This document shows positions 2,069 through 18,803 of a stretch of DNA of 20,012 nucleotides, piece after piece (the stretch's first letter is position 1; the number at the start of each line of letters is the position of its first letter). The DNA is from a virus, in the IMG/VR virus record IMGVR_UViG_3300022187_000333, positions 1-20,012 of that record; one strand, 5' to 3'. Position numbers and translations under genes: made by a program. The notes beneath the pieces were generated by a model, which was given only the letters and a program-made list of their open reading frames with translations, was not told where the DNA came from and ran no database searches.

Positions 2069-5000
2069 ATGAAGTTTTTAAGTGACTTACTGGTACAGGG
2101 CGATGGGAATGAAATTTTCCTTAAATCGGCGGACCACAATATTTCAAGGATTATACCCAGAGGTACTGGAGCTAACTTAGACAAAGGCCTTTTTTCTTTG
2201 TATGACACAGGCACTGAAGACGTTCGTATAGACACAGCTGGTAACTCATGGTTCAATGGCGGCAACGTCGGTATTGGTACTGCTAGTCCATCTTACAAAC
2301 TAGAGGTACAAGGCGATTTCTATGTTAATGGAAGTAATGGTGCGTTAACAACAGCTAGCTCTCAAAGTAATCTATATTTTCTTAACCTAACAAGATCAAC
2401 AACATCTTTAATTACAGCAGGCAACGTTGGTATTGGACTAACTAGCCCTAGCTATAAATTAGATGTTTATAGCGCAGCGGGCGTTGACCAAGTTGCAAGA
2501 TTTCAATCGCCAGACGACGGTGCTTTTATACAAATTAGAGACGATGATACTTTAGGTCAAGTTACCGTAAAAGACGGTGTAATGGCCATGGGATTGAATA
2601 GCAATTATCCCGCTAACACAATGCTTAACATACTTAATAGTGGCAACGTCGGGATCGGGACTACTAGTCCAGAAACTAAATTACACGTTGCAGGCGGTGA
2701 TGTTTTAATAAGCAATGGTCAATACTATAGTATAGAATCATCAACAGGGGGTAACTATAAAGTAGCTGGAGTTACTACTGGTAATGTTGTAGCGGTTGGC
2801 GCTATTGATTATACTTCTGCGGGAACAATTTTTGCTGGTGGGGACAATGTTAGCCTTACTACAGGCGGAGTTGGAGGTTCTACTAGAATTAAAATCGCCT
2901 CTAATGGCAACGTAGGTATAGGGACAACTAGTCCTACTGCGGCATTACACGTTCAGAAAGCTATTAGCGGAGGATTTGCAGGAACTATATATAATACTCA
3001 AGCCACAGGCGGTTTTGGATTAAGCGTAAGAGGGGGTAACTCATCTTCTCAAGACGCATTAAGAGTACAAAATGTAGGCGGAACGTATTTATTAAATGTT
3101 AAAGGTGATGGCAACGTCGGGATCGGGACTACTAGTCCTTCTGCATCACTTCATATTGGTTCGTCAAACGGGGTTATATTTGGTTCAACAGCAGGAGCTG
3201 TTGGTACATCACAAATTACAACAGCAAGCGCTAGCTCTCCAGTAAGTTCAAGATTCTCATTTGGAACAGATGGAACTGGTTGGCAATACCGAATTGCAAA
3301 AAACACAGCTGGAACTATTACTGACCTATTGACTATTGCTGATAGTGGCAACGTAGGTATTGGAACTACAAATCCTGGTTATCCTCTGGATATAGTCGGA
3401 TTCGCTAATTCTAGCAGTGGTTTTAGAGTAACCGATGGTACAATTGATAATAGAATAAGTTGGTCAAGTGGCAATGTTGGATTTTTTGGCACTATATCAA
3501 ACCACCCAATTGCATTTAATACAAACTCAATTGAACGAGTGCGAATCACCTCTTCTGGCAATGTAGGTATTGGAACTACCTCGCCAAACTCTTGGGCGCA
3601 ATTAGAGACTACAGGAACAGTAGCTGTTGGCGGTATTCTGTATATTAAATCTAGTCAAAAGATTCAAGGTTTGACAGGCTTCCCAGGAGGAGCTGGTAAC
3701 CTGTCTATTAATCCTGATGGAGGTAACGTTGGTATTGGAACGACTAGCCCTTCTGAGAAGCTACACGTATCAGGCAATTTAAGAGTTACCGGTGCTTTTG
3801 TAGACTCTTCCGCTTCTGTTGGATCTGCTGGAACAGTATTAAGTTCTACAAATACAGGAACCGCGTGGGTAGGCGCAAGCGGTTTACCAGGCGGCCCTTA
3901 CCTACCACTAGCTGGTGGGACGCTGACTGGCAATTTAAAGCTAAATGATGATGTTAATTTATATTTAGGCACAGGCAGTGATGCAGCCCTGTATCATAAT
4001 GGAACCAATACAGTTTTTGAAAATCATAGCGGCCACTTATATATACAAACAACTTCTGATGATAAAGATATTATACTCAGAAGTGATGATGGCAGCGGCG
4101 GCGTTACAGCGTATTTGACTGTAGACGGTAGCTTAAAGAAGACGCAGTTTTGGCAAAGCACAAGGCACATAGATAATGTCTACGCCACGTTTGGAGCATC
4201 TGACGACCTTCAGATATTCCACAATGGAAGTAATAGTTACATAAGAGACACAGGCACAGGAGATTTATATCTACAAGCTTCTGACAATATGTATTTCCAA
4301 ACCTATGGTTCAGGAAAAAGGTGGATTACATTAAATGAAAATGCTAGTGTTGATTTATTTTATAACGACTCTAAAAAGTTTGAAACCACAAGCACGGGGG
4401 TTACCGTAACAGGTAAAATATCAGGTCTTACAGCTGGTACAGCAAACACTGATGCGGTAAACGTACAACAGCTGAACAATGCTACTACCGGTGCTTTAAT
4501 ATATAAAGGAACCTGGAGCGCTGCACCAACAACAACTTCAGTACTAGACGGAGCGGTAAGTAGCGCCGGTTCAATCGTTATAGATGCAGTTAATCCAGGT
4601 ATATCTGTAGGTGCTACAATAACAGGTACAGGTATTTCAGGTACGGTTACGGTATCTAATATAGCCGCCGATGGAATTACAATAGCCATATCAAGCGCTC
4701 AGACTATAGCAGACGGGGTTACGCTAACGTTTACTACGGTTGGTGGTACACCAGATTTATCGCAGGCTTCAAGAAAAGTAACTGGGCACTATTACATATG
4801 TGAGACTGCTGGAGCAGTGACACCTAATGGTGCTGGTACTACGCCTAACGAATGGGCTGTAGGTGACTGGGCGACGTTCTCCGATCTAACCACAGATGCA
4901 TGGCAAAAGATAGACAACAGTTCTGTACTTAGTGGTGCGGGTACTGGCGGCAAAGTTCCTGTATGGTCTGGCACTGGCACTTCGGTTACTTTAGCTGACG

Positions 5001-6769
5001 CACCAATAACAGTTTCTGGTAACAACGCAACTTTTGCGGGTAATGTAACAGCTACTAACATACTGACAGTAGCAGGAGCAGCGACTGGTAGTCCTTATCT
5101 TCAATTTACTCAAGGAGGAAGCCAAAAAGCCTATATTCAATATGCGGATTCTGGAGATTCTTTTGAATTGCAAAGTGATAATCAATTTGCTGTTAGGACC
5201 GGTGGGTCAACTGCTGCTCTTATTATAAACTCCTCTCAAAACGCAACTTTCGCAGGGGCTGTTTCTACTGGCGGTTATTTAACATTAAATTCATCAGACG
5301 ATATTCCAAGATTAATTTTCAATGGTTCTGGGGATGATTTCATGTTTAGCAATACTGCGAATTATTTTGGTTTATATAATGATACCGATAGTAGATGGGA
5401 CATTCAAGTAGATGGTGCTGGTACAACAACTTTTGGAGGGGCTGTTTTTGTAGAGGATGACTTATACCTAACAGACACAGGAACCGTTAGGGGTAAGATA
5501 CAATTAAACTCAAGTGACAGAGACAACTTAGATATTAAAGCAATCTCTTTAGGCTCTTTAATGAGATTTTATACTGTTGATACTTTAGCTTTAACTTTAG
5601 ACGCATCACAAAACGCAACTTTTGCAGGAACAATACAAAGCGATGATATAACTATTGTTGATGGCACTAATGATGTTAATTTAAATTTCGGTAACACTTC
5701 TTACGGTTTAAGGTTAGACTATAGTACAGGTGATATTTTTTTAAGAACGAATGGTGCAACAAGGTTAACAGTAGCTAACGGCGGTAACGCAACTTTTGCA
5801 GGTAGCGCCACAATAGAAACTGGAATTAATTTAGAAAGTGGTGTATTAGTTATAAAAAATGCAACAACTGATTCCAATGGTTTAAGAATATTTCAAGATT
5901 CATCAGATGCTTCTAAAATATACAACAATTATAATGGAACACTACAATTAGGTGTTAATAATACTACATCATTAACTTTAGATGCATCACAAAACGCAAC
6001 TTTTGCAGGTAATGTTGCAATGGCTACGGGTAACGCTACAGGTAAGTTTGCTGTAAAAAGCGCGGGAGTGCATGCATCATATGACTTTTATAATAATGGA
6101 ACAAGTTATTTTAATGGTGGAGTTGTAGTAGATGCTGGACTTGCTCAAACTGGTGGTGCAGACGTAACTTTTTCAGGCGATGTAGGTATTGGAACTACAG
6201 ACCCTAAGTCAAAGCTACACGTTAATGGTGGTATTCAAATGGCTGGCGATACAGCAGCTGCCTCAGCGGATAAGGTCGGTACAATGCGCTACAGAACGGG
6301 CACGGAGTATGTAGAGGTTAATGGAACAGAATTGGTTACTAACGGGGATTTTGCGGCTGATAGTAGTTGGACTAAAGAAGCGGGTTGGAGCATCGCGAGC
6401 GGCAAGGCTAGTTATGATGCCTCTTCTGCAACAAACGCACTTTATCAAAGCATAGGGTTAACAACAGGTTCTGTATATAAACTATCATTTACAGTTGTTG
6501 ATTATACAAGTGGAAGCTTTAAAGGGCATTTAAGCAACGGAAACGCTACAGCAGCAACAGACGCTATAAGTGCTAATGGCGATTACTCTTTTAACATAAC
6601 AGCAACCGGCGCATTAGTGTTATTTAGAAACGTTACTAGCTTTAATGGCTCCATAGACAATGTATCAGTGATAGAAGTAACAGCAGAAGACGCAAGCTAC
6701 GCAGATATGTGTATGCAAACAGGTAGTTCAACATACGAGTGGGTTAACATAGTAAGAAATACATACTAA
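2069..6769 (+). CDS. Giant repeat tail fibre I, 1566 aa
   Basis: ATG at 2069 follows a 13-nt A/T leader. Residues ~65-570 hold eight GNVGIG-type repeats (consensus G-N-V-G-I-G-T-T-S-P followed by K-L-H-V), separated by variable 50-90 residue inserts, plus one degenerate G-N-V-G-F-F-G copy. About residue 611 is P-L-A-G-G-T-L-T-G, a common fibre hinge motif. Residues ~812-970 form the Y-K-G-T-W...D-A-W-Q-K-I-D-N-S-S-V-L-S-G-A-G-T-G-G-K-V module of marine phage fibres. Residues ~985-1315 carry five NATFAG repeats and two variants. A last D-V-G-I-G-T-T copy is near 1370. Residues ~1419-1535 (V-T-N-G-D-F...W onwards) look like a carbohydrate-binding jelly roll placed inside a short C-terminal fibre domain ending Y-E-W-V-N-I-V. 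The gene stops with TAA directly before the ATG of an in-frame second giant fibre. Adhesion and host-range function is inferred. Confidence 0.8.
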   Translation: MKFLSDLLVQGDGNEIFLKSADHNISRIIPRGTGANLDKGLFSLYDTGTEDVRIDTAGNSWFNGGNVGIGTASPSYKLEVQGDFYVNGSNGALTTASSQSNLYFLNLTRSTTSLITAGNVGIGLTSPSYKLDVYSAAGVDQVARFQSPDDGAFIQIRDDDTLGQVTVKDGVMAMGLNSNYPANTMLNILNSGNVGIGTTSPETKLHVAGGDVLISNGQYYSIESSTGGNYKVAGVTTGNVVAVGAIDYTSAGTIFAGGDNVSLTTGGVGGSTRIKIASNGNVGIGTTSPTAALHVQKAISGGFAGTIYNTQATGGFGLSVRGGNSSSQDALRVQNVGGTYLLNVKGDGNVGIGTTSPSASLHIGSSNGVIFGSTAGAVGTSQITTASASSPVSSRFSFGTDGTGWQYRIAKNTAGTITDLLTIADSGNVGIGTTNPGYPLDIVGFANSSSGFRVTDGTIDNRISWSSGNVGFFGTISNHPIAFNTNSIERVRITSSGNVGIGTTSPNSWAQLETTGTVAVGGILYIKSSQKIQGLTGFPGGAGNLSINPDGGNVGIGTTSPSEKLHVSGNLRVTGAFVDSSASVGSAGTVLSSTNTGTAWVGASGLPGGPYLPLAGGTLTGNLKLNDDVNLYLGTGSDAALYHNGTNTVFENHSGHLYIQTTSDDKDIILRSDDGSGGVTAYLTVDGSLKKTQFWQSTRHIDNVYATFGASDDLQIFHNGSNSYIRDTGTGDLYLQASDNMYFQTYGSGKRWITLNENASVDLFYNDSKKFETTSTGVTVTGKISGLTAGTANTDAVNVQQLNNATTGALIYKGTWSAAPTTTSVLDGAVSSAGSIVIDAVNPGISVGATITGTGISGTVTVSNIAADGITIAISSAQTIADGVTLTFTTVGGTPDLSQASRKVTGHYYICETAGAVTPNGAGTTPNEWAVGDWATFSDLTTDAWQKIDNSSVLSGAGTGGKVPVWSGTGTSVTLADAPITVSGNNATFAGNVTATNILTVAGAATGSPYLQFTQGGSQKAYIQYADSGDSFELQSDNQFAVRTGGSTAALIINSSQNATFAGAVSTGGYLTLNSSDDIPRLIFNGSGDDFMFSNTANYFGLYNDTDSRWDIQVDGAGTTTFGGAVFVEDDLYLTDTGTVRGKIQLNSSDRDNLDIKAISLGSLMRFYTVDTLALTLDASQNATFAGTIQSDDITIVDGTNDVNLNFGNTSYGLRLDYSTGDIFLRTNGATRLTVANGGNATFAGSATIETGINLESGVLVIKNATTDSNGLRIFQDSSDASKIYNNYNGTLQLGVNNTTSLTLDASQNATFAGNVAMATGNATGKFAVKSAGVHASYDFYNNGTSYFNGGVVVDAGLAQTGGADVTFSGDVGIGTTDPKSKLHVNGGIQMAGDTAAASADKVGTMRYRTGTEYVEVNGTELVTNGDFAADSSWTKEAGWSIASGKASYDASSATNALYQSIGLTTGSVYKLSFTVVDYTSGSFKGHLSNGNATAATDAISANGDYSFNITATGALVLFRNVTSFNGSIDNVSVIEVTAEDASYADMCMQTGSSTYEWVNIVRNTY
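2261..3771 (+). repeat. GNVGIGTTSP coding repeats, array 1 (8 copies)
   Basis: Copies of a ~30-nt unit coding G-N-V-G-I-G-x-x-x-P begin near 2261, 2420, 2642, 2906, 3110, 3347, 3557 and 3722. They are spaced about 160-270 nt apart, with unrelated inserts between them. The repeats are more alike than the inserts, several almost identical at DNA level. In the family, such units recur along trimeric fibre shafts; each is likely a short beta turn that locks the trimer. Confidence 0.85.
2641..2670 (+). repeat. 30-nt exact direct repeat, partner at 3109-3138
   Basis: The 30 bases starting tggcaacgtcgggatcggga are identical at 2641-2670 and 3109-3138. Near-copies differing at one or two positions occur at 8459-8487 and 8786-8814 in the next gene. 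All encode the GNVGIGTTSP unit in the same frame, so recombination between copies would keep the reading frame. Confidence 0.9.
5021..6012 (+). repeat. NATFAG coding repeats
   Basis: Units coding N-A-T-F-A-G occur five times (first near 5024, last near 5996), with variants T-T-F-G-G near 5428 and V-T-F-S-G near 6165. They are usually preceded by a T-L-D-A-S-Q or similar strand. The stretches 5591-5628 and 5972-6009 are almost identical at DNA level (one C/T difference). This is a second class of fibre-shaft repeat in the same protein, with inserts of about 60 residues. Confidence 0.8.
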
Positions 6770-9700
6770 ATGGGATTAGGAAAAACATATTCAGCAGATT
6801 ACTTAATAGACAGCAACGGCAACACAGGTGTTAGCGGGCAGGTCTTAATATCAACAGCTACAGGTATTGACTGGGCTGATGGTACTGCAATTACAGGTGG
6901 TCCTTTTTTACCGCTTTCAGCCGGGTCAAGTTATCCTTTGACAGGGGATTTGTACATAGATGAAGATTCACTATACTTACGCAATGCAAGTAACAACTAC
7001 TGGAGATTTCAAACTGCAACCAGCGATAAGCTTGTTATTAAAGCAGGTACTACTCAAAGAGGTATATGGTCCAGTGGTGAGCTGCAGTTAGCGAATAATT
7101 TAGTTGTAGACGGCAACGTAGGTATTGGAAGTACTGCACCTGCTGCTAAATTAAACGTTGCCTCAACAGGAGCTAACGCCTATTCAAGTACTATAACCAA
7201 GGGTACTAATATGAAGGGTATAATAAATGCTCTTTCAAATAATGCTGACGATATGGTTGGTATTTATTTTGGTACTGGCTGGACTTCAGAAGGAACTCAC
7301 TGGAGTGGTATAACTGGTTCAAGAAGTCAAAACGCTAGTGACTGGAGTACGCAGTTGAACTTTTACACTCACGATGAAAATGTCTCAAACCTTAATGATG
7401 CTACTCAAAAAATGGTCATCAAGGGTAGTGGCAACGTCGGTATCGGGACGGCTACCCCAGTATCTAAACTTCATATAAAAACGTCTGTTGATAATAGTGT
7501 CGCTCAAGGATTGGTTATTGAGAGAAGTGCAAATAGCGATAGGGGCTATATTAATTATAATGGAGGCGGATTTCAGTTTAGGTCAACAGTTGGAGACCCT
7601 ATTGTATTTGGTGAAACAGACGCTGAACATATGCGAATTCTGCCTGATGGCAACGTTGGTATCGGGACAACTAACCCTGGGTCACTCTTGCAAGTTGGTG
7701 GATTAGATGATGGCAGCAACTACGATATAACATTAGGCTGGAACGCTGTGGACAGTGAGGCTGTTGGAACCAAAAGGTCTGCTATAACTTTTAAAACTGG
7801 GCAAACATCGGTTAATACCGAAGATATATACAAGTGGGATATCGCGATGCTCGCCGCACCCGCTACTGTAACAGGTGAAGAGTTTGGCTCTGACCTTGCT
7901 TTTTTAAGAAGCACTAGGGGTTCAACAGCGACGGATGCAACTACAATGATTCTTACCCGAACAGGCAACGTTGGTATCGGGACTACTATTCCTATAGCTA
8001 AACTTTCTGTTTTAGCAACAAGCACTGGATACTCTTCAGATTCTCAGATAAAAGTTTCTGACGGTTCAACTAGTTATTATGGGGGATTAAGTTTTGATGA
8101 TGCAGGTTCAACAAGATTATCTGTTCGTAATTCTTATGATGGAACAGGTGCAATAGTAGGGTTTGGATTTGGAGGCAGCTCAGATAAAGTTCAAATCATC
8201 AACGGAACAGGCTTTATAGTAAATGAAGGCAACGTAGGGATCGGGACGACTGCTCCTGCTCAAAAGCTACACGTTTCTGGGGGGCATATATTACTAGACA
8301 ACAACAAAGAGATAAGACAAAAAGACTCTGGAGGCACTGAAAGAACTGTTTTTGAATTAGACTCCTCTAATGATTTAAACATTGGCGGCAGCTACGCAGG
8401 TGCATTGAGGTTTATTGGCGGCGGGTCTTACGCTGAAGTAATGCGTATCCACGATGACGGCAACGTAGGTATCGGGACTACTAGTCCTGGATCTAAGTTA
8501 GAAATACACAAAAGCATAACTTACGGATCATACGGTCCAGCTGCACCCCAATTAAATTTAGTAAACACACACACTGAAGGTACAGCAGGGTTCTTAATGT
8601 TAAGCGCGCGGTACAATAACACATCACCTGCACAAACTTTCTACCAGGTTGGCGGAATGGGCGGTGGTAAAGAAACCGCTCTAGCAAATAACGAGTGGGG
8701 AGGGTATATAAACTTCTTCACAACATCAGACGGAACCGCTGGAGCTGCCTCGGGTATGTTTGAGCATATGAGAATTACAGCAGACGGCAACGTCGGTATC
8801 GGGACTACTAGTCCAACAGAAAAGTTAGTCGTAAACGGAAATATAGAAACAGCAACACCCGCAGGTAAGATTGGATTTAATGTAGGGGATGCACACACAA
8901 ATGGGCCTCATTACGGTTTAGGTAAATTAAGCGGAGCTAATCCAGTAAACTTATCTGGATACTACGGACTATCCTTTTATACAGACGGAGCCGAAAGAGT
9001 TCGCGTATCTTCTGCCGGCAACGTTGGGATTGGAACGACTAGTCCAAATACTAAGCTTCACGTAAGTGGTAGTATTAAAGCAGAGGGTAATGGTACAGAC
9101 CAGTATTTCTTTGAGGGAGTAAGAACAGGTGTAGGAACTACTATAAGAATCTACGACAATGCGAACACAGCATATATAGACTCGTATAACAATATGGCGT
9201 TTAGAGCTAATCAAAACGGTGGCTCAGGCGGTAATTTTACATTTACAGGTGGCAACGTTGGTATTGGGACTACGAGTCCATATGGTAGACTTAATGTAAT
9301 ACCGTCCTCCAATCCTACAACTCCGACTGCTGCAAATCAAATATCCATAGGTGAGTCTTCTGCAAATTCGCAATACAATCTTCGTTTAGGTTATTTTTTA
9401 GAAGGTGGTGCTTACAAGGGGTCTATACAAGCTATATCGGGCAATACACCAAATACACTCATACTAAATGGAGATGGCGGCAACGTTGGGATTGGGACAA
9501 CTAGTCCTACACACAAGCTGCACGTAAACGGTGATATGCGCTTGACTGGTGCATTGCGGGACAGTAATAACGCTACAGGTAGTGCAGGACAGGTGCTAAG
9601 CTCCACAGGAAGTGCTACAGACTGGATACCACTACCGGCAACCCCTACTATATACACGCCTAAGGTTTACAACTTAAACAATTCAACTAACATCAATAGC

Positions 9701-10129
9701 CAAGGCCAAAAGCTAGTACCGGACTTTGGCACTTTAGAAATTGAAGGTAATACTACCATACAACAAGTTAGTGGCAGTGACACTGATTTCCAGGTGACCG
9801 GTGAAAACACGGGTATATATGAAGTAACCTACGCTGTGTTCTATAAAAACACAGGTAACCAGCGTACACCGCTAGGCACATACCTAACATTAAATGGTAC
9901 CGCAGTAAACGGTTCGCTTATGGTGAACTACTTGCGGTCCGATGTAGCAGGTGGTGGTAATTGGTCAAGCTGCACAAATACTTTCTATGTAAACGTAACA
10001 GACGCATCCCACCCTATAGCTTTATGTGTTAGGAGAGCGGACAGCTCAACCGCTCCTTCGGGAATTAGCATGGTAGAGCCTGCAGGAATGGCAGTAAAAA
10101 GCACAATATCATTCAGAAGAATATCTTAA
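6770..10129 (+). CDS. Giant repeat tail fibre II, 1119 aa
   Basis: ATG at 6770 touches the TAA at 6767-6769 of the previous fibre and is in the same frame. The first ~60 residues (S-G-Q-V-L-I-S-T-A-T-G-I-D-W then P-F-L-P-L-S-A-G) are paralogous to the hinge near residue 600 of the previous protein. Residues ~115-915 contain ten GNVGIG repeats with variable inserts. Residues ~930-955 repeat the hinge type (G-S-A-G-Q-V-L-S-S-T-G). The last ~160 residues, from roughly 957, form a globular domain with G-I-Y-E-V-T-Y-A-V-F-Y and a strand-rich end (V-K-S-T-I-S-F-R-R-I-S) that resembles the TNF/C1q-like jelly rolls at the tips of phage fibres. That fold call is by pattern only. Likely a receptor-binding distal fibre; no intramolecular S74 peptidase domain was seen at its end. 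Confidence 0.8.
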   Translation: MGLGKTYSADYLIDSNGNTGVSGQVLISTATGIDWADGTAITGGPFLPLSAGSSYPLTGDLYIDEDSLYLRNASNNYWRFQTATSDKLVIKAGTTQRGIWSSGELQLANNLVVDGNVGIGSTAPAAKLNVASTGANAYSSTITKGTNMKGIINALSNNADDMVGIYFGTGWTSEGTHWSGITGSRSQNASDWSTQLNFYTHDENVSNLNDATQKMVIKGSGNVGIGTATPVSKLHIKTSVDNSVAQGLVIERSANSDRGYINYNGGGFQFRSTVGDPIVFGETDAEHMRILPDGNVGIGTTNPGSLLQVGGLDDGSNYDITLGWNAVDSEAVGTKRSAITFKTGQTSVNTEDIYKWDIAMLAAPATVTGEEFGSDLAFLRSTRGSTATDATTMILTRTGNVGIGTTIPIAKLSVLATSTGYSSDSQIKVSDGSTSYYGGLSFDDAGSTRLSVRNSYDGTGAIVGFGFGGSSDKVQIINGTGFIVNEGNVGIGTTAPAQKLHVSGGHILLDNNKEIRQKDSGGTERTVFELDSSNDLNIGGSYAGALRFIGGGSYAEVMRIHDDGNVGIGTTSPGSKLEIHKSITYGSYGPAAPQLNLVNTHTEGTAGFLMLSARYNNTSPAQTFYQVGGMGGGKETALANNEWGGYINFFTTSDGTAGAASGMFEHMRITADGNVGIGTTSPTEKLVVNGNIETATPAGKIGFNVGDAHTNGPHYGLGKLSGANPVNLSGYYGLSFYTDGAERVRVSSAGNVGIGTTSPNTKLHVSGSIKAEGNGTDQYFFEGVRTGVGTTIRIYDNANTAYIDSYNNMAFRANQNGGSGGNFTFTGGNVGIGTTSPYGRLNVIPSSNPTTPTAANQISIGESSANSQYNLRLGYFLEGGAYKGSIQAISGNTPNTLILNGDGGNVGIGTTSPTHKLHVNGDMRLTGALRDSNNATGSAGQVLSSTGSATDWIPLPATPTIYTPKVYNLNNSTNINSQGQKLVPDFGTLEIEGNTTIQQVSGSDTDFQVTGENTGIYEVTYAVFYKNTGNQRTPLGTYLTLNGTAVNGSLMVNYLRSDVAGGGNWSSCTNTFYVNVTDASHPIALCVRRADSSTAPSGISMVEPAGMAVKSTISFRRIS
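7112..9525 (+). repeat. GNVGIGTTSP coding repeats, array 2 (10 copies)
   Basis: Units start near 7112, 7430, 7649, 7964, 8228, 8459, 8786, 9017, 9251 and 9479, about 220-330 nt apart. Most have ggcaacgt as their first eight bases and are followed by a K-L-H-V-like strand. They match the units of array 1 more closely than the intervening inserts match each other. Confidence 0.85.
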
Positions 10130-11512: not shown

Positions 11513-11532
11513 CTAATTTAATTTAATCTAAT
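11513..11532 (+). repeat. Tandem pentamer in the groEL leader
   Basis: Four consecutive YTAAT pentamers (ctaat, ttaat, ttaat, ctaat) run directly into the ATG of the chaperonin gene; the last pentamer shares its final two bases with the start codon. There is no purine-rich ribosome site. It may simply be an A/T-rich unstructured leader favourable for starts in Bacteroidota, or a replication-slippage tract that tunes spacing. Confidence 0.4.
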
Positions 11533-13096
11533 GCAATACAACAACCCCAGCGAGATCGTCAAAGATCTTACGTTTGGCCATACAGCCAACGAAAAAATTA
11601 TGTCCGGCGTCGAAAAGTTAACAAGCGCAGTGAAGTCTACTTTAGGAGCTTCAGGTAAATGCGTTATATACGAAGACGCTATGGGCCGACCGGTCATTAC
11701 AAAAGACGGTGTAACCGTTGCGGAAAGCGTAGTCTTACGTGATCCGGTCGAAAATATAGGTGCAACCTTAATTAAGGAAGCGGCTGCAAACACTGTGCGT
11801 GAAGCGGGTGACGGTACTACAACAGCTACCGTCCTCGCTCATGCTATTTTGAAAGAAATTAATAAACACAAAAATGAAGGGCAAACTAGAAACGTTAAAA
11901 CAGGCATTCAAGACTGTGCTGAAGAAGTTATGGTTTATCTTAATGATGCCAGTATTCCGGTTGCAGATCAAATGCTACAGCAAGTTGCTTACATTAGCTG
12001 TAACAACGATAAAGCGCTTGGAGACAAAATTGGAGAAGCTTTCGGCAAAGTTGGAGCGGATGGCGTCGTTTTGATGGAAGAGTCCGATACAAATGAAACT
12101 TATGTTGATTTTGTTGAGGGCACGCAATTTGATTCTGGCCTTAAGTCACCACACCTTGTTACGAATAAGGATAAAGGCATTGCTGAACTTGACAACCCTT
12201 TGGTACTTATCGTAGCATCGGAAATACCAAACATTCGTCGCATTCAATCTATACTAGAGTTTGCGATTAAAAACAACCGAGCACTTTTAGTTATCGCGGG
12301 TATGGATCAACAACCGTACCAAACGCTACTAGCAAACAAAGTGAAAGGTAACATTAAGATTAACATCGTTGACGTGCCAGGCTTTGGCCCCACAAAGCAA
12401 GATACTATTGAAGACTTAGCTTTACTTACGGGCGCAACGATTATAAATGAGCAGCTTGGTGACGATTTAGATTTAATCGACCCGTCAGTACTAGGCTCAG
12501 CAGTTAAGTCTGTAACAAACAATAAAAGCACAGTCCTGCAGGTTGATGTGGACAAAGAAGTGCTAGAAGATCGCATTAAAGATGTACGTAAGAAGATTAG
12601 TGAAGAAACTAACGGTTTCTTTAAAGGTAAGCTCGAACAGCGGTTATCCATGCTATCCGGCAGTGTCGGGATCGTATATGTTGGGGCTGACTCGCAAGTC
12701 GAACTAAAAGAAAAGAAAGATAGAGTTGAAGATGCTATCTATGCTGTGCAAGCAGCTTTGAAAGAAGGTATTGTGCCCGGTGGCGGTACTGCACTTCTAC
12801 AGGCCTCTCAAGCTATCAAAAGCAAAGGCTTAGGCTACGACATTCTGTTAAGTGCTATACGCGCACCGTTTAATGTTATATTGGACAACGCTGGCATTAA
12901 ATTTTCTGGTAGCTTAACAACCAAGCACGACGGTATTGATGCTTCTACTGGTGAACGCGTTAATATGATTAAGAAGGGTATTATTGACCCAGTATTAGTT
13001 ACTAAGACGGCTTTAAAGAATGCGGTAAGTGTTGCCACCACGATTACGTCTGCAGATTGTATAATCTCTAATATGCGTATCGATGCAAGCAATTAA
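11531..13096 (+). CDS. groEL: Phage GroEL-type chaperonin (Cpn60), 521 aa
   Basis: Encodes a group I chaperonin subunit, which forms ATP-driven rings that fold proteins in the cytoplasm. ATP-site features are intact: T-L-G at 37-39, K-D-G-V at 58-61, G-D-G-T-T-T at 93-98, the hydrolysis Asp at 401 in V-E-D-A, P-G-G-G-T near 416-420 and D486 in G-I-I-D-P. The apical domain has V-P-G-F-G followed by L-T-G-A-T. The protein is about 27 residues shorter than E. coli GroEL (548) and lacks the Gly-Gly-Met tail. By eye alignment, inter-ring and inter-subunit contact residues differ (E116 for A109, loop with E434 missing, N448 for R452, K457 for E461, S202 for R197, Q389 for E386). A GroES gene overlaps its 3' end. 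It is viral by context. A role in folding capsid or giant fibres is inferred; assignment to the family is certain. Confidence 0.95.
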   Translation: MQYNNPSEIVKDLTFGHTANEKIMSGVEKLTSAVKSTLGASGKCVIYEDAMGRPVITKDGVTVAESVVLRDPVENIGATLIKEAAANTVREAGDGTTTATVLAHAILKEINKHKNEGQTRNVKTGIQDCAEEVMVYLNDASIPVADQMLQQVAYISCNNDKALGDKIGEAFGKVGADGVVLMEESDTNETYVDFVEGTQFDSGLKSPHLVTNKDKGIAELDNPLVLIVASEIPNIRRIQSILEFAIKNNRALLVIAGMDQQPYQTLLANKVKGNIKINIVDVPGFGPTKQDTIEDLALLTGATIINEQLGDDLDLIDPSVLGSAVKSVTNNKSTVLQVDVDKEVLEDRIKDVRKKISEETNGFFKGKLEQRLSMLSGSVGIVYVGADSQVELKEKKDRVEDAIYAVQAALKEGIVPGGGTALLQASQAIKSKGLGYDILLSAIRAPFNVILDNAGIKFSGSLTTKHDGIDASTGERVNMIKKGIIDPVLVTKTALKNAVSVATTITSADCIISNMRIDASN

Positions 13097-13340
13097 CCAC
13101 TATATAGTAATACGTAAGATTAAAGAGGCGCCGGTGAAAGTTGGTGGCCTCGAACTTACGGAAGACCAGAACAAAGACGTGCGCTATTTAAAAGCTGAAA
13201 TCGTTAGCGTTGGTGACAAAGTTACGATGCTAGCACCTGGTAATATTATTAGGTACGATAAGCACGCTGGCCACGGTATTGAATGGAACGAAGATTTGTT
13301 CCACGTTATTAACCTCGGGGATGTTGTCATTGTAGAATGA
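13083..13340 (+). CDS. groES: GroES-type co-chaperonin (Cpn10), 85 aa
   Basis: Starts inside the last 14 nt of groEL, so the two are translationally coupled. The GroES fold order is visible: a first strand H-Y-I-V-I-R-K, a mobile-loop region V-G-G-L-E-L-T at residues 20-26, a second strand block A-E-I-V-S-V-G-D-K-V, an N-I-I-R-Y-D-K-H-A-G-H-G strand and a closing strand D-V-V-I-V-E. In E. coli GroES the loop tripeptide I-V-L docks on GroEL; here it is L-E-L, with an acidic middle residue. The protein is about ten residues shorter than GroES (97). Its 3' end overlaps the next gene by ATGA. It probably caps the adjacent phage GroEL. Confidence 0.85.
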   Translation: MQAINHYIVIRKIKEAPVKVGGLELTEDQNKDVRYLKAEIVSVGDKVTMLAPGNIIRYDKHAGHGIEWNEDLFHVINLGDVVIVE

Positions 13341-13777
13341 AAATAGAACCGAGTGACTTGCGCGATATGAATTTGTTTAAGTATTACAGGCTCGTTAGGA
13401 AATGGGCTTGTAAGACTTACGGCATAACAGATGCGGATCTTGAACTGCTTATCTATTTAGATTGCAAAGACAGGTTTACGCGTAATGATTTTATTAACGG
13501 TACATACACCTACGCGTGGGATAAAAGACGGTGGGAACGGTTACGTCAGAACGATTGGATCGAAGTATGGCGCCATAGGAATAAAACAACGATTAAATAC
13601 AGTGTTTTTAAAGTGTCACAAAAGACGCGGAGATTGATAACACGCATGTACAATATAATGTTAGGCTACGAGGATATGCCTATAGGACCTTCAAGTAAGT
13701 TTTATAAAAACAAATCGTATACAGATAAAGTCTATAACAAGGCTATAGATGATATGATAAAAGATAAAGAACGATGA
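13337..13777 (+). CDS. Putative winged-helix protein, 146 aa
   Basis: ATG overlaps the groES stop (ATGA). The protein is strongly basic and aromatic. Residues ~12-105 resemble a MarR-like winged helix: a helix F-K-Y-Y-R-L-V-R-K-W, then I-T-D-A-D-L-E-L-L-I-Y-L, a possible recognition region Y-A-W-D-K-R-R-W-E-R-L, and a wing-like hairpin W-I-E-V-W-R-H-R-N-K-T-T-I-K-Y-S-V-F, followed by a long helix. I have seen similar proteins in marine phage genomes, next to structural genes. It could bind DNA to regulate late genes, or could be a packaging or head factor. Fold is inferred by pattern; function unproven. Confidence 0.55.
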   Translation: MKIEPSDLRDMNLFKYYRLVRKWACKTYGITDADLELLIYLDCKDRFTRNDFINGTYTYAWDKRRWERLRQNDWIEVWRHRNKTTIKYSVFKVSQKTRRLITRMYNIMLGYEDMPIGPSSKFYKNKSYTDKVYNKAIDDMIKDKER

Positions 13778-13935
13778 TGTACTCTAAACCTATTACGCAA
13801 AGAGCTAAATGTAATTACAGCTCAATGCCTGCGACACAAGAAGTAACTATTGATGCTGGTGGTAAAACACCTGGTAACTTTGAAGCTTCACCAATGAAAA
13901 TGAAAGGCGGCTGCGGCTGCGGTTGCGGAAAGTAA
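13774..13935 (+). CDS. Cys-rich microprotein, 53 aa
   Basis: ATG at 13774 overlaps the previous stop (ATGATG; the next codon at 13777 is also ATG), and the TAA at 13933-13935 overlaps the next ATG. This double overlap in one frame supports a real gene despite its size. The protein begins M-M-Y-S-K-P-I-T-Q-R-A-K-C-N-Y and ends K-M-K-G-G-C-G-C-G-C-G-K, giving one early Cys and three alternating Cys near the C-terminus. No family recognised. The Cys-Gly tail could bind metal or form disulfides; neither is shown. Confidence 0.6.
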   Translation: MMYSKPITQRAKCNYSSMPATQEVTIDAGGKTPGNFEASPMKMKGGCGCGCGK

Positions 13936-14288
13936 TGTTTAAACTTAAGAACAAAGGGATGCTGTTTGGCATCAATAAAGAAGCGTCAGAGCACGGAACA
14001 CCAGTGTTTGAAAAGCAGTTAGGTGACGGCATACAGGCTGAAGCTAATCGTGACGGAACCATATTTGTTCAAAAGGGTTTGTCACAAGACAAAATTAACG
14101 ACGCTGTTGAACACGAAAAAGTACACATTGACCAAATGGCTCAGGGTAAACTTGGTTACACTGCGGACACAGTAACGTGGAAGAAGGACACTCGTTCACC
14201 AGCCAGAGTATATACAAGGCAAACAATGCTCGAAGGTGCTCACGGATTACCGTGGGAAGCAGAAGCATATCAGAAAACTAAAAAATAA
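13935..14288 (+). CDS. HExxH zincin-like protein, 117 aa
   Basis: ATG at 13935 overlaps the previous stop by 1 nt (TAATG). A TTG start 12 nt upstream is possible but less likely. The central motif is A-V-E-H-E-K-V-H-I-D-Q with H60, E61 and H64, the HExxH zinc site of metallopeptidases. P-W-E-A-E-A-Y near residues 106-112 offers E108 or E110 as a third ligand (gluzincin pattern). There is no signal peptide. The family is familiar from short phage and Bacteroidota proteins annotated as zincins; the overall length is small for a full protease. It could process a virion protein, or be a catalytically dead structural zinc fold. Confidence 0.55.
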   Translation: MFKLKNKGMLFGINKEASEHGTPVFEKQLGDGIQAEANRDGTIFVQKGLSQDKINDAVEHEKVHIDQMAQGKLGYTADTVTWKKDTRSPARVYTRQTMLEGAHGLPWEAEAYQKTKK

Positions 14289-14362: not shown

Positions 14363-14650
14363 ATGGCATACGTACAAGAATCTTCACCTTTTAATAAGCT
14401 GAAGAAAACAACAAAAGGTAAAGGACGCCACTTTTTAAGCGCTAAAGAAGGCGCTGGAATGACAGCAGCAGGCCGTAAGGCTTACAATAGAGAGACAGGT
14501 GGTAACCTTAAGGCTCCACAGCCTAAAGGCGGTAAGCGCCGTACATCGTATTGCGCCCGCTCAAAAGGGCAAATGCAAATGCACAACATTAACTGTTCGA
14601 AAACACCGGACAAACGCATCTGCGCAGCACGCCGTAGATGGAACTGCTAA
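14363..14650 (+). CDS. Small basic Cys-containing phage protein (DUF6321-like), 95 aa
   Basis: ATG at 14363. The core L-S-A-K-E-G-A-G-M-T-A-A-G-R-K-A-Y-N-R at residues 25-43, followed by G-G-N-L-K-A-P-Q-P, then a basic Cys tail (C64, H74, C78, C87, C95) ending R-R-R-W-N-C, matches a small family widespread in phages (I think DUF6321, number from memory). The high Lys/Arg content suggests nucleic-acid binding. The Cys/His set could bind zinc. No experimental role is known to me. It lies among the head-type genes. Confidence 0.65.
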   Translation: MAYVQESSPFNKLKKTTKGKGRHFLSAKEGAGMTAAGRKAYNRETGGNLKAPQPKGGKRRTSYCARSKGQMQMHNINCSKTPDKRICAARRRWNC

Positions 14651-15587: not shown

Positions 15588-15783
15588 TGTAGGAAAAGAC
15601 TATAAGAATGACGCCATGCACTATTCTGTTGGACAGGAAGTGTATGGTGGTCATACTATAGTTAATATTATAGAAGAGGAAGCAAAGTACTCTATCTATA
15701 TTCAGAAAGCTGATAATGTAATGCCGTGGAAAGACTTTAATAAGAACATGGCAGTATCTGTAGAATACGATCTTAATTGGTGA
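15565..15783 (+). CDS. Small conserved phage protein, 72 aa
   Basis: I place the start at ATG 15565, inside the end of the coiled-coil gene; a TTG at 15544 would add seven residues. The start M-Q-I-I-R-K-I-S-V-G fits the compact protein better. Further patterns are Y-S-V-G-Q-E-V-Y-G-G-H-T-I, A-D-N-V-M-P-W-K-D-F-N and a V-E-Y-D-L-N-W end. It is a small beta protein of unknown role, recurrent beside the coiled-coil and GroES-like genes in related phages (from memory). Its stop overlaps the next start (TGATG). Confidence 0.55.
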   Translation: MQIIRKISVGKDYKNDAMHYSVGQEVYGGHTIVNIIEEEAKYSIYIQKADNVMPWKDFNKNMAVSVEYDLNW

Positions 15784-16373
15784 TGCAAAGCATATTTAAC
15801 TTTATCGTTGCACCAAAGCACGGTAGGTCTACATCGAAGAAAGATATAGGCGGCAAAGAGTTACTATTAAACACAGAAGTACAAAACCACCATTATACTA
15901 GCAGGTTAGGTGTTGTAACAAATACACCTTTAGCTATTGATTCAGAAATAAAAATTGGTGACGAAGTAATCGTTCACCATAACGTATTTAGACGCTTTCG
16001 CGACATTAGAGGCAAAGAAAAGAACTCTAAGGCATATTACAAAGAAGACGCATTCTTTGTGCAACCGGATCAGATTTATGCTTACAAAAGAAACACGGAG
16101 TGGCAAGCGCTAGATGGTTACTGCTTCGTTAAACCTATAGCAGCAAAAGAGACGTTTGATATGCATAACGAGCAGCCTGCAATAGGTATTGTAAAATATG
16201 CTAGTGGAGAGCTTGAAGAAGGTGCACTTGTAGGGTTCAAACCCGGTATGGAATACGAATTTAATATAGAGGGCGAACGATTGTATCGTATACCCACCAA
16301 TCAAATTACAATCGAATATGAGTATCAAGGAGACGAAAAAGAGTATAATCCTAGCTGGTCACAGAGCTGTTGA
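15783..16373 (+). CDS. Putative tandem GroES-fold protein, 196 aa
   Basis: ATG at 15783 overlaps the previous stop; in-frame TTG and GTG just upstream are less likely. The first half follows the GroES order: F-N-F-I-V-A-P-K, a G-G-K-E-L-L-L-N-T loop resembling the mobile loop (G-G-I-V-L in E. coli), L-G-V-V-T-N, I-K-I-G-D-E-V-I-V-H-H-N-V-F like K-V-G-D-I-V-I-F-N, and A-F-F-V-Q-P-D-Q-I-Y-A-Y like the closing strands. The second half repeats this without a loop: L-D-G-Y-C-F-V-K-P, A-I-G-I-V-K-Y, V-G-F-K-P-G and Y-R-I-P-T-N-Q-I-T-I-E-Y. Pfam-like similarity cannot be tested here. A lid for a chaperonin, host or phage, is the leading idea; a head-assembly role is the alternative. Confidence 0.6.
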   Translation: MQSIFNFIVAPKHGRSTSKKDIGGKELLLNTEVQNHHYTSRLGVVTNTPLAIDSEIKIGDEVIVHHNVFRRFRDIRGKEKNSKAYYKEDAFFVQPDQIYAYKRNTEWQALDGYCFVKPIAAKETFDMHNEQPAIGIVKYASGELEEGALVGFKPGMEYEFNIEGERLYRIPTNQITIEYEYQGDEKEYNPSWSQSC

Positions 16374-16593
16374 TGAACTCATTAAAGTCGCGCAAGAGAA
16401 AATCATTACTAATACAGAAGATGATGTATCTGCAGACCGATTAAAAAACGCTGCTGCTACTAAGAAGCTGGCGATATTCGACGCATTTGAAATATTAAAT
16501 CGCATACAAGAAGAAGAACGCATACTACAAAACAAACCGGCGGAAGAAAAGAAAGAAGCTTTTAAAGGATTTGCTGAAAGACGTTCTAAGTAA
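16318..16593 (+). CDS. terS: Putative small terminase subunit, 91 aa
   Basis: ATG at 16318 lies 56 nt inside the GroES-like gene in another frame. The protein is helical and charged. The core D-D-V-S-A-D-R-L-K-N-A-A-A-T-K-K-L-A-I-F-D-A-F near residues 35-58 is a pattern I know from proteins directly upstream of the large terminase in marine phages. Small terminases recognise phage DNA and start packaging. No helix-turn-helix is obvious, and the length is short. The gene overlaps the large terminase by 1 nt (TAATG). Position is the main argument. Confidence 0.5.
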   Translation: MSIKETKKSIILAGHRAVDELIKVAQEKIITNTEDDVSADRLKNAAATKKLAIFDAFEILNRIQEEERILQNKPAEEKKEAFKGFAERRSK

Positions 16594-18803
16594 TGTACGA
16601 GCAAAGTTTAGTTAAAACCGTAGAGCCCATAAAACTTACAACGGTACATCGTTACAACAAAAGTAAGAAATGGAAATACGGTTACAATAAAGAACACGAC
16701 CTTATTGTATTAAGCAAAACAGGTCAGATAGGCGAGATTATTGAAATACAAAATCTTGTTATAGCTTTACCACCAGAGCCTAAGAATCTAAACAAAGGTT
16801 TAAACAAATGGGCTGTTCAGGAGTATCCTAAAGAGCTTAAAAACATTAAGAGCATATTCGATTGGCAAACATATCCAGATGAATTTAAGAACAAGTGGGA
16901 GAGTTATATTGATGAAGAATTCAACCGCCGTGATAACGGCTATTGGTTTTATAATAAAGGCAAGCGTACTTATATCACTGGCACTCACTACATGTACTTG
17001 CAGTGGAGTAAGATCGATGTTGGTAATCCAGACTACAGAGAAGCCAATAGACTCTTCTTTATATTCTGGGAAGCCTGTAAGGTTGATACAAGATGTTACG
17101 GAATGTGCTACCTTAAAAACAGACGGAGTGGATTCTCATTTATGGCATCAGGTGAAACTGTCAACCAAGCAACTATCTCAAGTGATGCCAGATTCGGTAT
17201 CTTATCAAAGTCCGGTAGTGATGCAAAGAAAATGTTTACCGATAAAGTTGTACCAATTTCCCTCAACTACCCGTTTTTCTTTAAGCCTATACAAGATGGT
17301 ATGGATCGACCGAAGACTGAACTGGCATATAGGGTTCCTGCTTCTAAGCTAACACGTAAGTCAATACAGTCGCAAGAAGAAAGAATACAACTGGAAGGTC
17401 TTGATACAACGATTGACTGGAAGAATACAGGGGACAACTCTTATGATGGTGAAAAGCTTAAGCTGCTTGTGCATGATGAAAGCGGTAAGTGGGAAAAGCC
17501 TGATAACATACTAAACAACTGGCGCGTAACTAAAACGTGTTTGCGTCTTGGTTCTCGTATCATTGGTAAGTGTTTAATGGGTAGCACATCGAACTCTTTA
17601 GACAAAGGTGGTAACAACTTTAAGAAGTTGTATTTAGATTCAGATGTAACCAAAAGAAACAATAATGGTCAAACAAAATCGGGATTGTACTCGCTCTTTA
17701 TACCAATGGAGTGGAACTATGAAGGATTTATTGATGAGTACGGGCAGCCGGTATTTAATACACCTGAAGAAGAAGCTATAGACCCACACGGTGATAGCAT
17801 CGAGGTCGGCGTTATAGATTACTGGGAAAATGAAGTTGACGGTCTTAAACAAGACCAAGATGCTTTGAACGAATACTACCGCCAGTTTCCACGTACCACA
17901 GACCACGCTTTCCGTGATGAAAGCAAGAATAGTATTTTTAACTTAGCAAAAATCTACGAACAGGTTGATTATAACGCAGACTTGCGTAATACTAATACTG
18001 TAACCCGTGGGAGTTTTCAGTGGGAAAACGGAGTTAAGGATACTAAAGTAGTGTTTATGCCAAACCCCTCAGGTCGCTTTAATGTGTCTTGGGTACCTGG
18101 TTTAAACTTACAAAACAAGTATACAGTTAAAAACGGTATCAAATACCCAGGCAACGAACACGTCGGCGCTTTTGGGTGTGATAGCTACGATATTTCAGGA
18201 ACGACTGACGGCAGGGGTTCCAAAGGTGCATTGCATGGATTAACTAAATTCACAATGGAGGATGCGCCACCTAGTACATTCTTTTTAGAATACATAGCTA
18301 GGCCTCAAACAGCAGAGATATTTTTCGAAGACGTGCTTATGGCTTGTGTCTTTTACGGAATGCCAATACTTGCCGAGAATAACAAACCAAGGTTATTATA
18401 CCACTTTAAAAGAAGAGGTTACCGGGGTTATTCGATGAACCGACCTGACAGATTATGGAACAAGCTTTCTATAACTGAGAAAGAAATAGGTGGAATACCT
18501 AACTCTAGTATGGACATGAAGCAAGCACACGCTGCTGCTATTGAAATGTACATCGAAAACCACGTAGGTGTAATAACCGAAGGTGAATACGGTACAATGT
18601 ATTTTAACGATACGCTAAACGATTGGTCTAAGTTCGATATGAACAACAGAACGAAGTACGATGCTTCCATCAGCTCAGGGCTGGCTATTATGGCTTGCCA
18701 CAAAGATCTGTACAAACCGATCGGTGAACAACAGAAAACAAAATTAAACCTAAAGATTGCAAGGTTCAGTCAAGACGGTTATACTTCAAAAATAATAAAA
18801 TAA
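16593..18803 (+). CDS. terL: Terminase large subunit, 736 aa
   Basis: Encodes the ATP-driven motor and nuclease that packages DNA into the prohead. The ATPase domain has a deviant Walker A K-N-R-R-S-G-F-S at residues 175-182, a Walker B L-L-V-H-D-E at 291-296 (D295, E296) and a coupling motif G-S-T-S at 330-333. The nuclease domain begins near residue 527 with F-G-C-D-S-Y-D (D530, D533), then S-G-T-T-D-G-R-G-S-K-G. About 170 residues precede Walker A, more than in typical terminases, so the protein is at the long end of the family. It starts by TAATG overlap with the putative small subunit and ends 4 nt before the portal gene. Motor motifs make this secure. Confidence 0.9.
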   Translation: MYEQSLVKTVEPIKLTTVHRYNKSKKWKYGYNKEHDLIVLSKTGQIGEIIEIQNLVIALPPEPKNLNKGLNKWAVQEYPKELKNIKSIFDWQTYPDEFKNKWESYIDEEFNRRDNGYWFYNKGKRTYITGTHYMYLQWSKIDVGNPDYREANRLFFIFWEACKVDTRCYGMCYLKNRRSGFSFMASGETVNQATISSDARFGILSKSGSDAKKMFTDKVVPISLNYPFFFKPIQDGMDRPKTELAYRVPASKLTRKSIQSQEERIQLEGLDTTIDWKNTGDNSYDGEKLKLLVHDESGKWEKPDNILNNWRVTKTCLRLGSRIIGKCLMGSTSNSLDKGGNNFKKLYLDSDVTKRNNNGQTKSGLYSLFIPMEWNYEGFIDEYGQPVFNTPEEEAIDPHGDSIEVGVIDYWENEVDGLKQDQDALNEYYRQFPRTTDHAFRDESKNSIFNLAKIYEQVDYNADLRNTNTVTRGSFQWENGVKDTKVVFMPNPSGRFNVSWVPGLNLQNKYTVKNGIKYPGNEHVGAFGCDSYDISGTTDGRGSKGALHGLTKFTMEDAPPSTFFLEYIARPQTAEIFFEDVLMACVFYGMPILAENNKPRLLYHFKRRGYRGYSMNRPDRLWNKLSITEKEIGGIPNSSMDMKQAHAAAIEMYIENHVGVITEGEYGTMYFNDTLNDWSKFDMNNRTKYDASISSGLAIMACHKDLYKPIGEQQKTKLNLKIARFSQDGYTSKIIK

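What the first reader, a model, noticed from the sequence alone, without database searches (positions are those of the whole stretch)
11531..13096. Viral GroEL with every examined inter-ring contact changed: predicted single-ring chaperonin
In E. coli GroEL the two rings touch through A109-A109 with K105-E434, and through R452-E461. Aligning by eye, the phage protein has E116 at the A109 position, so two acids would face each other. About seven residues that include E434 are deleted between D401 and A445. N448 replaces R452 and K457 replaces E461. E461K is a known E. coli mutation that disturbs ring pairing. Loss at both contact sites in one protein that keeps its ATP site suggests selection for single or loosely paired rings. 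Single-ring behaviour has been reported for chaperonins of some Pseudomonas jumbo phages, so this would be an independent case in a different phage group.
Basis: partly seen in the sequence, partly recalled or inferred. Interest (0 to 1): 0.85.

Follow-up and report, generated by a model that had tools for sequence, protein, structure and literature searches.

The report
Phage chaperonin with lost ring-pairing contacts
A virus of Bacteroidetes-type bacteria carries its own protein-folding barrel (GroEL) and lid (GroES); the residues that hold two barrels back to back in bacteria are gone in this virus and in all its close relatives, so the barrel probably works singly or in loose pairs, which would help show why cells need the double form.

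Summary
ORF 11531-13096 is a group I chaperonin (37% identical to E. coli GroEL) with K112/E116 at K105/A109, the 434 loop deleted, N448 at R452 and K457 at E461. The pattern covers a whole clade. In 79 phage relatives, six inter-ring positions that are intact in 79/79 bacteria have become variable (entropy 0.73 in cells, 2.30 in phages; 0/20,000 permutations), while the ATP and intra-ring sites stay conserved. Divergent bacterial paralogues at the same identity keep most of these contacts; viral GroELs do not (p=1.4e-6, not corrected for ancestry). The 452-461 salt bridge is lost, not swapped. The model lacks helix Q and has a shorter helix D, as reported for phage EL. The gene is linked to a cognate groES whose lid loop has an acid at position 26 in 79/79 relatives (0/73 bacteria). 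A Cpn20-like tandem co-chaperonin candidate lies upstream of terL. Best reading: a lid-using chaperonin whose rings are single or loosely paired. A strict single ring is not shown: EL with comparable losses is double without ATP, and GroEL point mutants at these contacts still crystallise as 14-mers. E434 is not a conserved contact, and E116 probably starts helix E.

The parts
11531..13096 (+). groEL-like chaperonin gene, 521 aa; ATP site intact, no GGM tail
   Evidence: Pfam Cpn60_TCP1 4e-52, PHROG groEL 1e-135; 37% identity to E. coli GroEL; AlphaFold pLDDT 84.8, Foldseek best hits all GroEL/Hsp60
11864..11878 (+). left inter-ring locus: codons K112-E116 (E. coli K105-A109); helix D predicted to end at 112
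   Evidence: ungapped register; model helices 96-112 and 116-140
12812..12832 (+). shortened loop (codons 428-434) where E. coli 430-438 including E434/D435 lies; 7 residues deleted
   Evidence: 434 column is a gap in 79/79 clade members; D435 conserved in bacteria, not in the clade
12872..12928 (+). right inter-ring locus: codons 448-466; R452->N, E461->K, V464->G, helix Q replaced by coil
   Evidence: segment is 25-27 or 36-40 residues in the clade, mostly 31-32 in the bacteria measured
13083..13340 (+). groES-like co-chaperonin, 85 aa, overlapping the end of groEL by 14 bases; roof hairpin shortened
   Evidence: Pfam Cpn10 2.6e-5; follows groEL in 80/80 loci; hhalign to GroES prob 96
13149..13157 (+). 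GroES mobile-loop tripeptide Leu-Glu-Leu (E. coli I25-V26-L27)
   Evidence: Glu at position 26 in 79/79 clade members, 0/73 bacterial GroES
15783..16373 (+). second co-chaperonin candidate, 196 aa, tandem GroES-like (Cpn20-like) fold, two genes upstream of terL
   Evidence: PHROG 'co-chaperonin GroES' 9e-16; Foldseek best PDB match 7ekq_R (entry titled CrClpP-S2c, 194-aa chain) E 2.6e-5 over full length; found in 69/80 loci in conserved order with terL

Best explanation
The gene encodes a phage group I chaperonin that still binds and hydrolyses ATP, forms heptameric rings and is capped by its own GroES, but whose rings no longer hold a stable GroEL-type (staggered, back-to-back) 14-mer: they work as single rings or as loose, nucleotide-dependent pairs. 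In GroEL the opposite ring's ATP signal ejects GroES. Here the lid would release without that signal because lid binding itself has been retuned: the cognate GroES has an acid in the middle of its docking tripeptide, opposite a remodelled apical groove (L234->Q, V264->A/S, E257->Q), and the salt bridges that stabilise GroEL's resting state are gone. The chamber would fold phage proteins (client unknown). Shown: sequence loss, clade-wide relaxation, intact ATP site, linked cognate groES. Inferred: ATPase activity, quaternary state, lid release, client.
For: Inter-ring signature 6/6 in 79/79 bacteria against 0-4 (mostly 1-2) in 79 clade members. Mean entropy at six positions 0.73 against 2.30; ATP site 0.25/0.17, helix H/I lid sites 0.45/0.21, intra-ring stem loop 0.93/0.21; permutation 0/20,000. 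452-461 opposite charges in 62/63 bacteria, 5/36 clade members (2.4 expected by shuffling), so lost and not swapped. At 0.55-0.65 identity to the nearest bacterial GroEL, divergent bacterial paralogues keep on average 4.2-5.1 of 6 contacts and viral proteins 1.6-2.3. Model: helix D one turn short and helix Q replaced by coil, two equatorial changes described for phage EL (PMC7185714). OBP, published as a single ring, scores 0/6 and lacks the same salt-bridge quartet; AR9-like PBS1 scores 1/6. groES adjacent in 80/80 loci; Glu26 in 79/79 cognate GroES; Gln234 in 79/79 GroEL. In E. coli, single-ring GroEL becomes functional when lid binding is weakened; GroES I25L, the residue most of the phage lids have at that place, appears functional with it (PMC5575113).
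Against: No quaternary structure was computed or measured. Loss of individual contacts does not abolish the 14-mer: PDB entries for GroEL E461K, K105A, A109C and E434K each hold 14 chains. EL keeps a 1:1 double ring with quite different contacts (PMC7185714). In about 10 of 37 non-redundant members K105 pairs with an acid at 109, which could form a new left contact like the one in mtHsp60 (PMC7174398). GroES V26D does not abolish GroEL binding (PMC5575113), so how far Glu26 weakens the lid is unknown.
Confidence: 0.62

Rival explanations
1. Stable double ring with a new in-register (1:1) interface, as in apo phage EL: the old contacts were replaced, not simply lost.
For: EL shares the short helix D and missing helix Q and is a 1:1 double ring without ATP (PMC7185714). 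Twenty-five of 79 clade members carry a longer segment at the helix Q position (36-40 residues), which could build a new contact.
Against: The clade shows no conserved new patch there: length and sequence of the segment vary even among members about 70% identical, and opposite charges at 452/461 are not significantly enriched (p=0.057). The window itself has the short form.
Confidence: 0.2
2. Ordinary fast divergence of a phage gene: the inter-ring positions drift like the rest, with no functional meaning.
For: Several other cell-conserved columns are variable too (R118, D121, D253, G337). One very divergent proteobacterial paralogue (L349, 0.47 identity) also scores 1/6.
Against: Matched-identity bacterial paralogues keep 4-5 of 6 contacts. 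Other functional sites are as conserved in the clade as in bacteria. Viral GroELs at 0.55-0.65 identity lose the inter-ring contacts while keeping the allosteric quartet at the bacterial level (p=0.68).
Confidence: 0.12
3. Chaperonin working without a lid, as proposed for EL/OBP/AR9 (aggregation prevention or lid-free refolding).
For: Same loss of inter-ring and allosteric residues as OBP and the EL-like protein; the apical groove is changed.
Against: A cognate groES overlaps the end of groEL and is present in 80/80 loci; helix H/I lid positions are strongly conserved within the clade.
Confidence: 0.06

Closest known systems
Phage OBP gp246 and AR9 gp228 chaperonins (single rings, PMC9598537)
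   Same: phage-encoded GroEL-like protein; R452/E461/A109 contacts lost or altered (AR9 judged from its relative PBS1); OBP also lacks the D83/K327/R197/E386 quartet
   Different: far more divergent (0.23-0.26 to nearest bacterial GroEL against 0.43), jumbo phages, reported to work without a co-chaperonin; separate on the tree
Phage EL gp146 (PMC7185714)
   Same: short helix D, helix Q replaced by a loop, allosteric salt bridges lost
   Different: double ring in apo form and single with ATP; no interaction with E. coli GroES; longer helix N; no groES known in the phage
Human mitochondrial Hsp60-Hsp10 (PMC7174398, PMC5575113)
   Same: canonical inter-ring salt bridges absent while a cognate lid is kept; weak lid binding lets single rings cycle
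   Different: cellular; forms ATP-dependent footballs; keeps a hydrophobic lid loop (own knowledge)
E. coli GroEL SR (R452A/E461A/S463A/V464A, PMC5575113)
   Same: the same four positions are altered in the phage protein or its clade
   Different: engineered; locks GroES unless the lid is weakened
GroEL/GroES of Flavobacterium phage elemo, Cellulophaga phage Calle/phi38:1, Maribacter phage Panino
   Same: group with the window clade (94/90 support with elemo and Panino), related TerL, eroded contacts, tandem GroES homologue present
   Different: only 36-39% identical; Calle has its cpn10 gene upstream of groEL

Membership tests
Group I chaperonin (Cpn60/GroEL) | Cpn60 sequence family and three-domain fold | tested here: met
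   Pfam E 4e-52; Foldseek top matches GroEL/Hsp60
Group I chaperonin (Cpn60/GroEL) | ATP site: TLG, KDG, DGTTT, catalytic D398, GGG, D495 | tested here: met
   T30 L31 G32, K51 D52 G53, D87-T91, D398, G414-G416 and D495 each 79/79 in the clade
Group I chaperonin (Cpn60/GroEL) | works with a GroES-type lid | tested here: inconclusive
   cognate groES gene adjacent in 80/80 loci; binding itself could not be tested
Group I chaperonin (Cpn60/GroEL) | canonical inter-ring contact residues of the staggered double ring (105/109 and 452/461/463/464) | tested here: not met
   contact residues lost clade-wide. This is a trait of GroEL-type double rings rather than of the sequence family (mtHsp60 lacks it too); the ring state itself could not be tested
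Single-ring phage chaperonin (OBP/AR9 type) | heptameric single ring in solution | not testable with these tools
   needs SEC-MALS, EM or native MS
Single-ring phage chaperonin (OBP/AR9 type) | loss of canonical inter-ring contacts | tested here: met
   OBP 0/6, PBS1 (AR9-like) 1/6, window clade 0-4/6
Single-ring phage chaperonin (OBP/AR9 type) | no co-chaperonin | tested here: not met
   cognate groES in 80/80 loci
Cpn20-type tandem co-chaperonin (for 15783-16373) | two GroES-like domains in one chain | tested here: inconclusive
   full-length Foldseek match to 7ekq_R, E 2.6e-5, TM 0.56; sequence support moderate for the N half (hhalign prob 75 to the phage GroES) and weak for the C half

The most novel reading that the evidence does not exclude
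Phages that capture a bacterial GroEL repeatedly abandon the double ring: inter-ring contacts erode in several separate viral lineages (the Bacteroidota-phage clade, Vibrio phages nested among gammaproteobacterial GroELs, EL/OBP, AR9/PBS1), and in the window's clade the lid has co-evolved to a weaker, acidic docking loop and been joined by a Cpn20-like second lid, giving natural single-ring encapsulating chaperonins outside mitochondria.
Probability: 0.35. Interest if true: 0.8.

Novelty: new variant of a known kind. Interest (0 to 1): 0.62.

Why it matters
Why GroEL is a double ring is a long-standing question, and the usual answer (trans-ring ATP ejects the lid) predicts that a natural lid-using single ring needs a weakened lid. 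This clade offers dozens of natural chaperonin/lid pairs in which ring contacts and lid loop have both changed, so the prediction can be tested directly. It also gives a sequence signature (six positions) that sorts phage chaperonins into ring-contact-intact and ring-contact-eroded types, both of which occur.

Tried and rejected
E434 as a diagnostic contact: rejected, not conserved in bacteria. 'Two acids face each other' at 109: doubtful, since E116 starts helix E in the model and K112-E116 could even pair across rings. MAFFT on phage sequences plus E. coli alone slides the 105/109 and 461 columns, and a large fast alignment still slides some (one search reads N at 109 of the window), so register was re-checked with bacterial sequences and with gap-free patterns. 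Generic divergence: tested with Planctomycetota and proteobacterial paralogues and rejected as the main cause. Closest Foldseek match by TM (ADP-bound mtHsp60 single ring 9shk, 0.88) reflects subunit conformation and is not used as evidence. A claim that all phage GroELs are eroded: rejected, many are intact (SJC03, Vibrio 2.275). 85-aa GroES against the phages collection: no tblastn match. LR756501 (huge phage) was not recovered full length and was left out.

Full report
WHAT IS THERE. The ORF at 11531-13096 (521 aa) is an intact group I chaperonin. Its end overlaps the start of an 85-aa GroES-like gene (13083-13340) by 14 bases. The window is a 20-kb IMG/VR virus record. Its large terminase (16593-18803) matches, in the phage collection searched, only phages of Flavobacterium, Cellulophaga, Tenacibaculum and Maribacter apart from one uncultured spring phage, and the nearest cellular GroELs are mostly flavobacterial at up to 43%, so the host is probably a Bacteroidota bacterium. 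No GGM tail is present.

THE OBSERVATION. Two refinements: E434 is not a conserved contact in bacteria while D435 is, and E116 is the first residue of helix E in the model (helix D 96-112, helix E 116-140).

IS IT MORE THAN CHANCE. I used 79 bacterial GroELs from many phyla and 79 phage sequences (the window and relatives 65-93% identical to it). All 79 bacteria keep a six-position inter-ring signature (105 K/R, 109 A/S, 452 R/K, 461 E/D, 463 S/A/G/N, 464 V/I/L; the allowed letters were set from these same bacteria, so the informative comparison is with the paralogues below); clade members keep 0-4, mostly 1-2. After removing redundancy, mean entropy at the six positions is 0.73 bits in bacteria and 2.30 in the clade, although whole-protein entropy is lower in the clade (0.79 against 0.97); no conservation-matched set of columns reached this in 20,000 draws, also within the equatorial domain. 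The ATP site, lid-binding helices H/I and the intra-ring stem loop stay as conserved as in bacteria or more so. The 452-461 salt bridge is absent, not swapped: 62/63 bacteria have opposite charges, 5/36 clade members do against 2.4 expected. The permutation treats columns as independent and does not correct for the tree.

IS IT ONLY FAST DIVERGENCE. I fetched divergent bacterial paralogues, mostly Planctomycetota. At 0.55-0.65 identity to the nearest standard GroEL they keep on average 4.2-5.1 of 6 contacts; 32 other viral GroELs in the same band keep 1.6-2.3, with the allosteric quartet equally kept in both (non-redundant Mann-Whitney 1.4e-6 and 0.68; sequences are not independent). The loss is therefore a property of these viral proteins and not a by-product of distance. 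A tree built without the inter-ring columns has a viral-only clade of 29 representatives (SH-aLRT 97), all at 0-3 of 6, and further viral losses, for example Vibrio phages beside E. coli GroEL; other phage GroELs remain 6/6. Parsimony needs ten changes, some of them in cellular paralogues. The window clade is separate from EL/OBP and AR9/PBS1, but those branches are very long and their placement is unsure. Highly bacteria-like IMG/VR sequences could be mis-assigned cellular DNA; the eroded types are hard to explain that way.

STRUCTURE. The AlphaFold model (pLDDT 85) has helix D ending at residue 112 and coil where GroEL has helix Q. For phage EL the authors report a shortened helix D and helix Q replaced by a loop, plus the loss of D83-K327 and R197-E386 (PMC7185714). 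The window clade has lost those salt bridges too: D83 is R/K/H, K327 mostly D/S/E/N, R197 S/A/C, E386 mostly K/A/Q. OBP, published as a single ring (PMC9598537), scores 0/6.

THE LID. The groES gene follows groEL in 80/80 loci. In 79/79 cognate GroES proteins the docking tripeptide has Glu in the middle (LEL in 56), against 0/73 bacterial GroES; other eroded viral GroELs with a nearby groES nearly all keep hydrophobic loops, so this step is a speciality of the clade. In the chaperonin's groove L234 and E257 are Gln in 79/79 and V264 is Ala/Ser in 77/79; Y199, Y203, F204 and L259 are also replaced in most. In E. coli, single-ring GroEL-SR locks GroES and becomes functional when lid binding is weakened; GroES I25L and I25F appear functional with it (PMC5575113). 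V26D alone did not abolish binding to GroEL, so the strength of the effect of Glu26 is unknown.

SECOND CO-CHAPERONIN. A 196-aa protein at 15783-16373, two genes upstream of terL and present with terL in 69 of the 80 loci (most of the others are short fragments), is called GroES-like by PHROGs (9e-16). Its model (pLDDT 78) best matches chain R of 7ekq (a 194-aa chain) over its whole length (E 2.6e-5, TM 0.56); from my own knowledge that entry is the Chlamydomonas ClpP-Cpn11/20/23 complex and the chain is of Cpn20/23 type. Sequence support is moderate for the N half and weak for the C half. A review describes two-domain co-chaperonins as a speciality of chloroplasts (PMC5780408). Whether this protein caps the phage chaperonin is untested.

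VERDICT. 'No stable GroEL-type double ring' is the best reading (about 0.6 with the lid mechanism). A strictly single ring is perhaps even odds within that. It remains a prediction: EL shows that such losses can coexist with an ATP-labile double ring, and single mutants at these contacts still crystallise with 14 chains.

Noticed in passing
15783-16373: Cpn20-like tandem GroES candidate, conserved next to terL in this clade and present in Flavobacterium elemo, Cellulophaga Calle/phi38:1 and Maribacter Panino phages; with the 85-aa GroES this would mirror the Cpn10+Cpn20 pair of chloroplasts.
   Followed up: partly
11531-13096, apical domain: The hydrophobic client-binding residues of GroEL (Y199, Y203, F204, L234, L259, V264) are replaced but in new, clade-conserved forms (L/I, H, L, Q, Y/F, A/S), suggesting a specialised client and a private lid.
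   Followed up: partly
13337-13777: 146-aa gene of unknown function directly after groES in 80/80 loci (62-100% identity); no Pfam, PHROG or PADLOC match. A possible third member of the cassette.
   Followed up: no
L178-L348 and named phage loci: Phage GroELs fall into contact-intact (5-6/6) and contact-eroded (0-3/6) types; erosion occurs in several separate lineages, often with a groES nearby (65 of 84).
   Followed up: yes
2069-6769 and 6770-10129: Two very large ORFs (1566 and 1119 aa) with many GNVGIGTTSP-type repeats, typical of tail-fibre or adhesin-like proteins.
   Followed up: no
13923-14288: 121-aa ORF with a HEKVH stretch (HExxH-like zinc protease motif).
   Followed up: no
14363-14650: 95-aa ORF matching the C-terminal ends of several much larger phage proteins (phrog_10346, 3477, 727 and others), as if a terminal domain had become a separate gene.
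   Followed up: no
L349: A highly divergent proteobacterial GroEL paralogue (44% to E. coli) that also lacks the inter-ring contacts (1/6) and the allosteric quartet (1/4).
   Followed up: no
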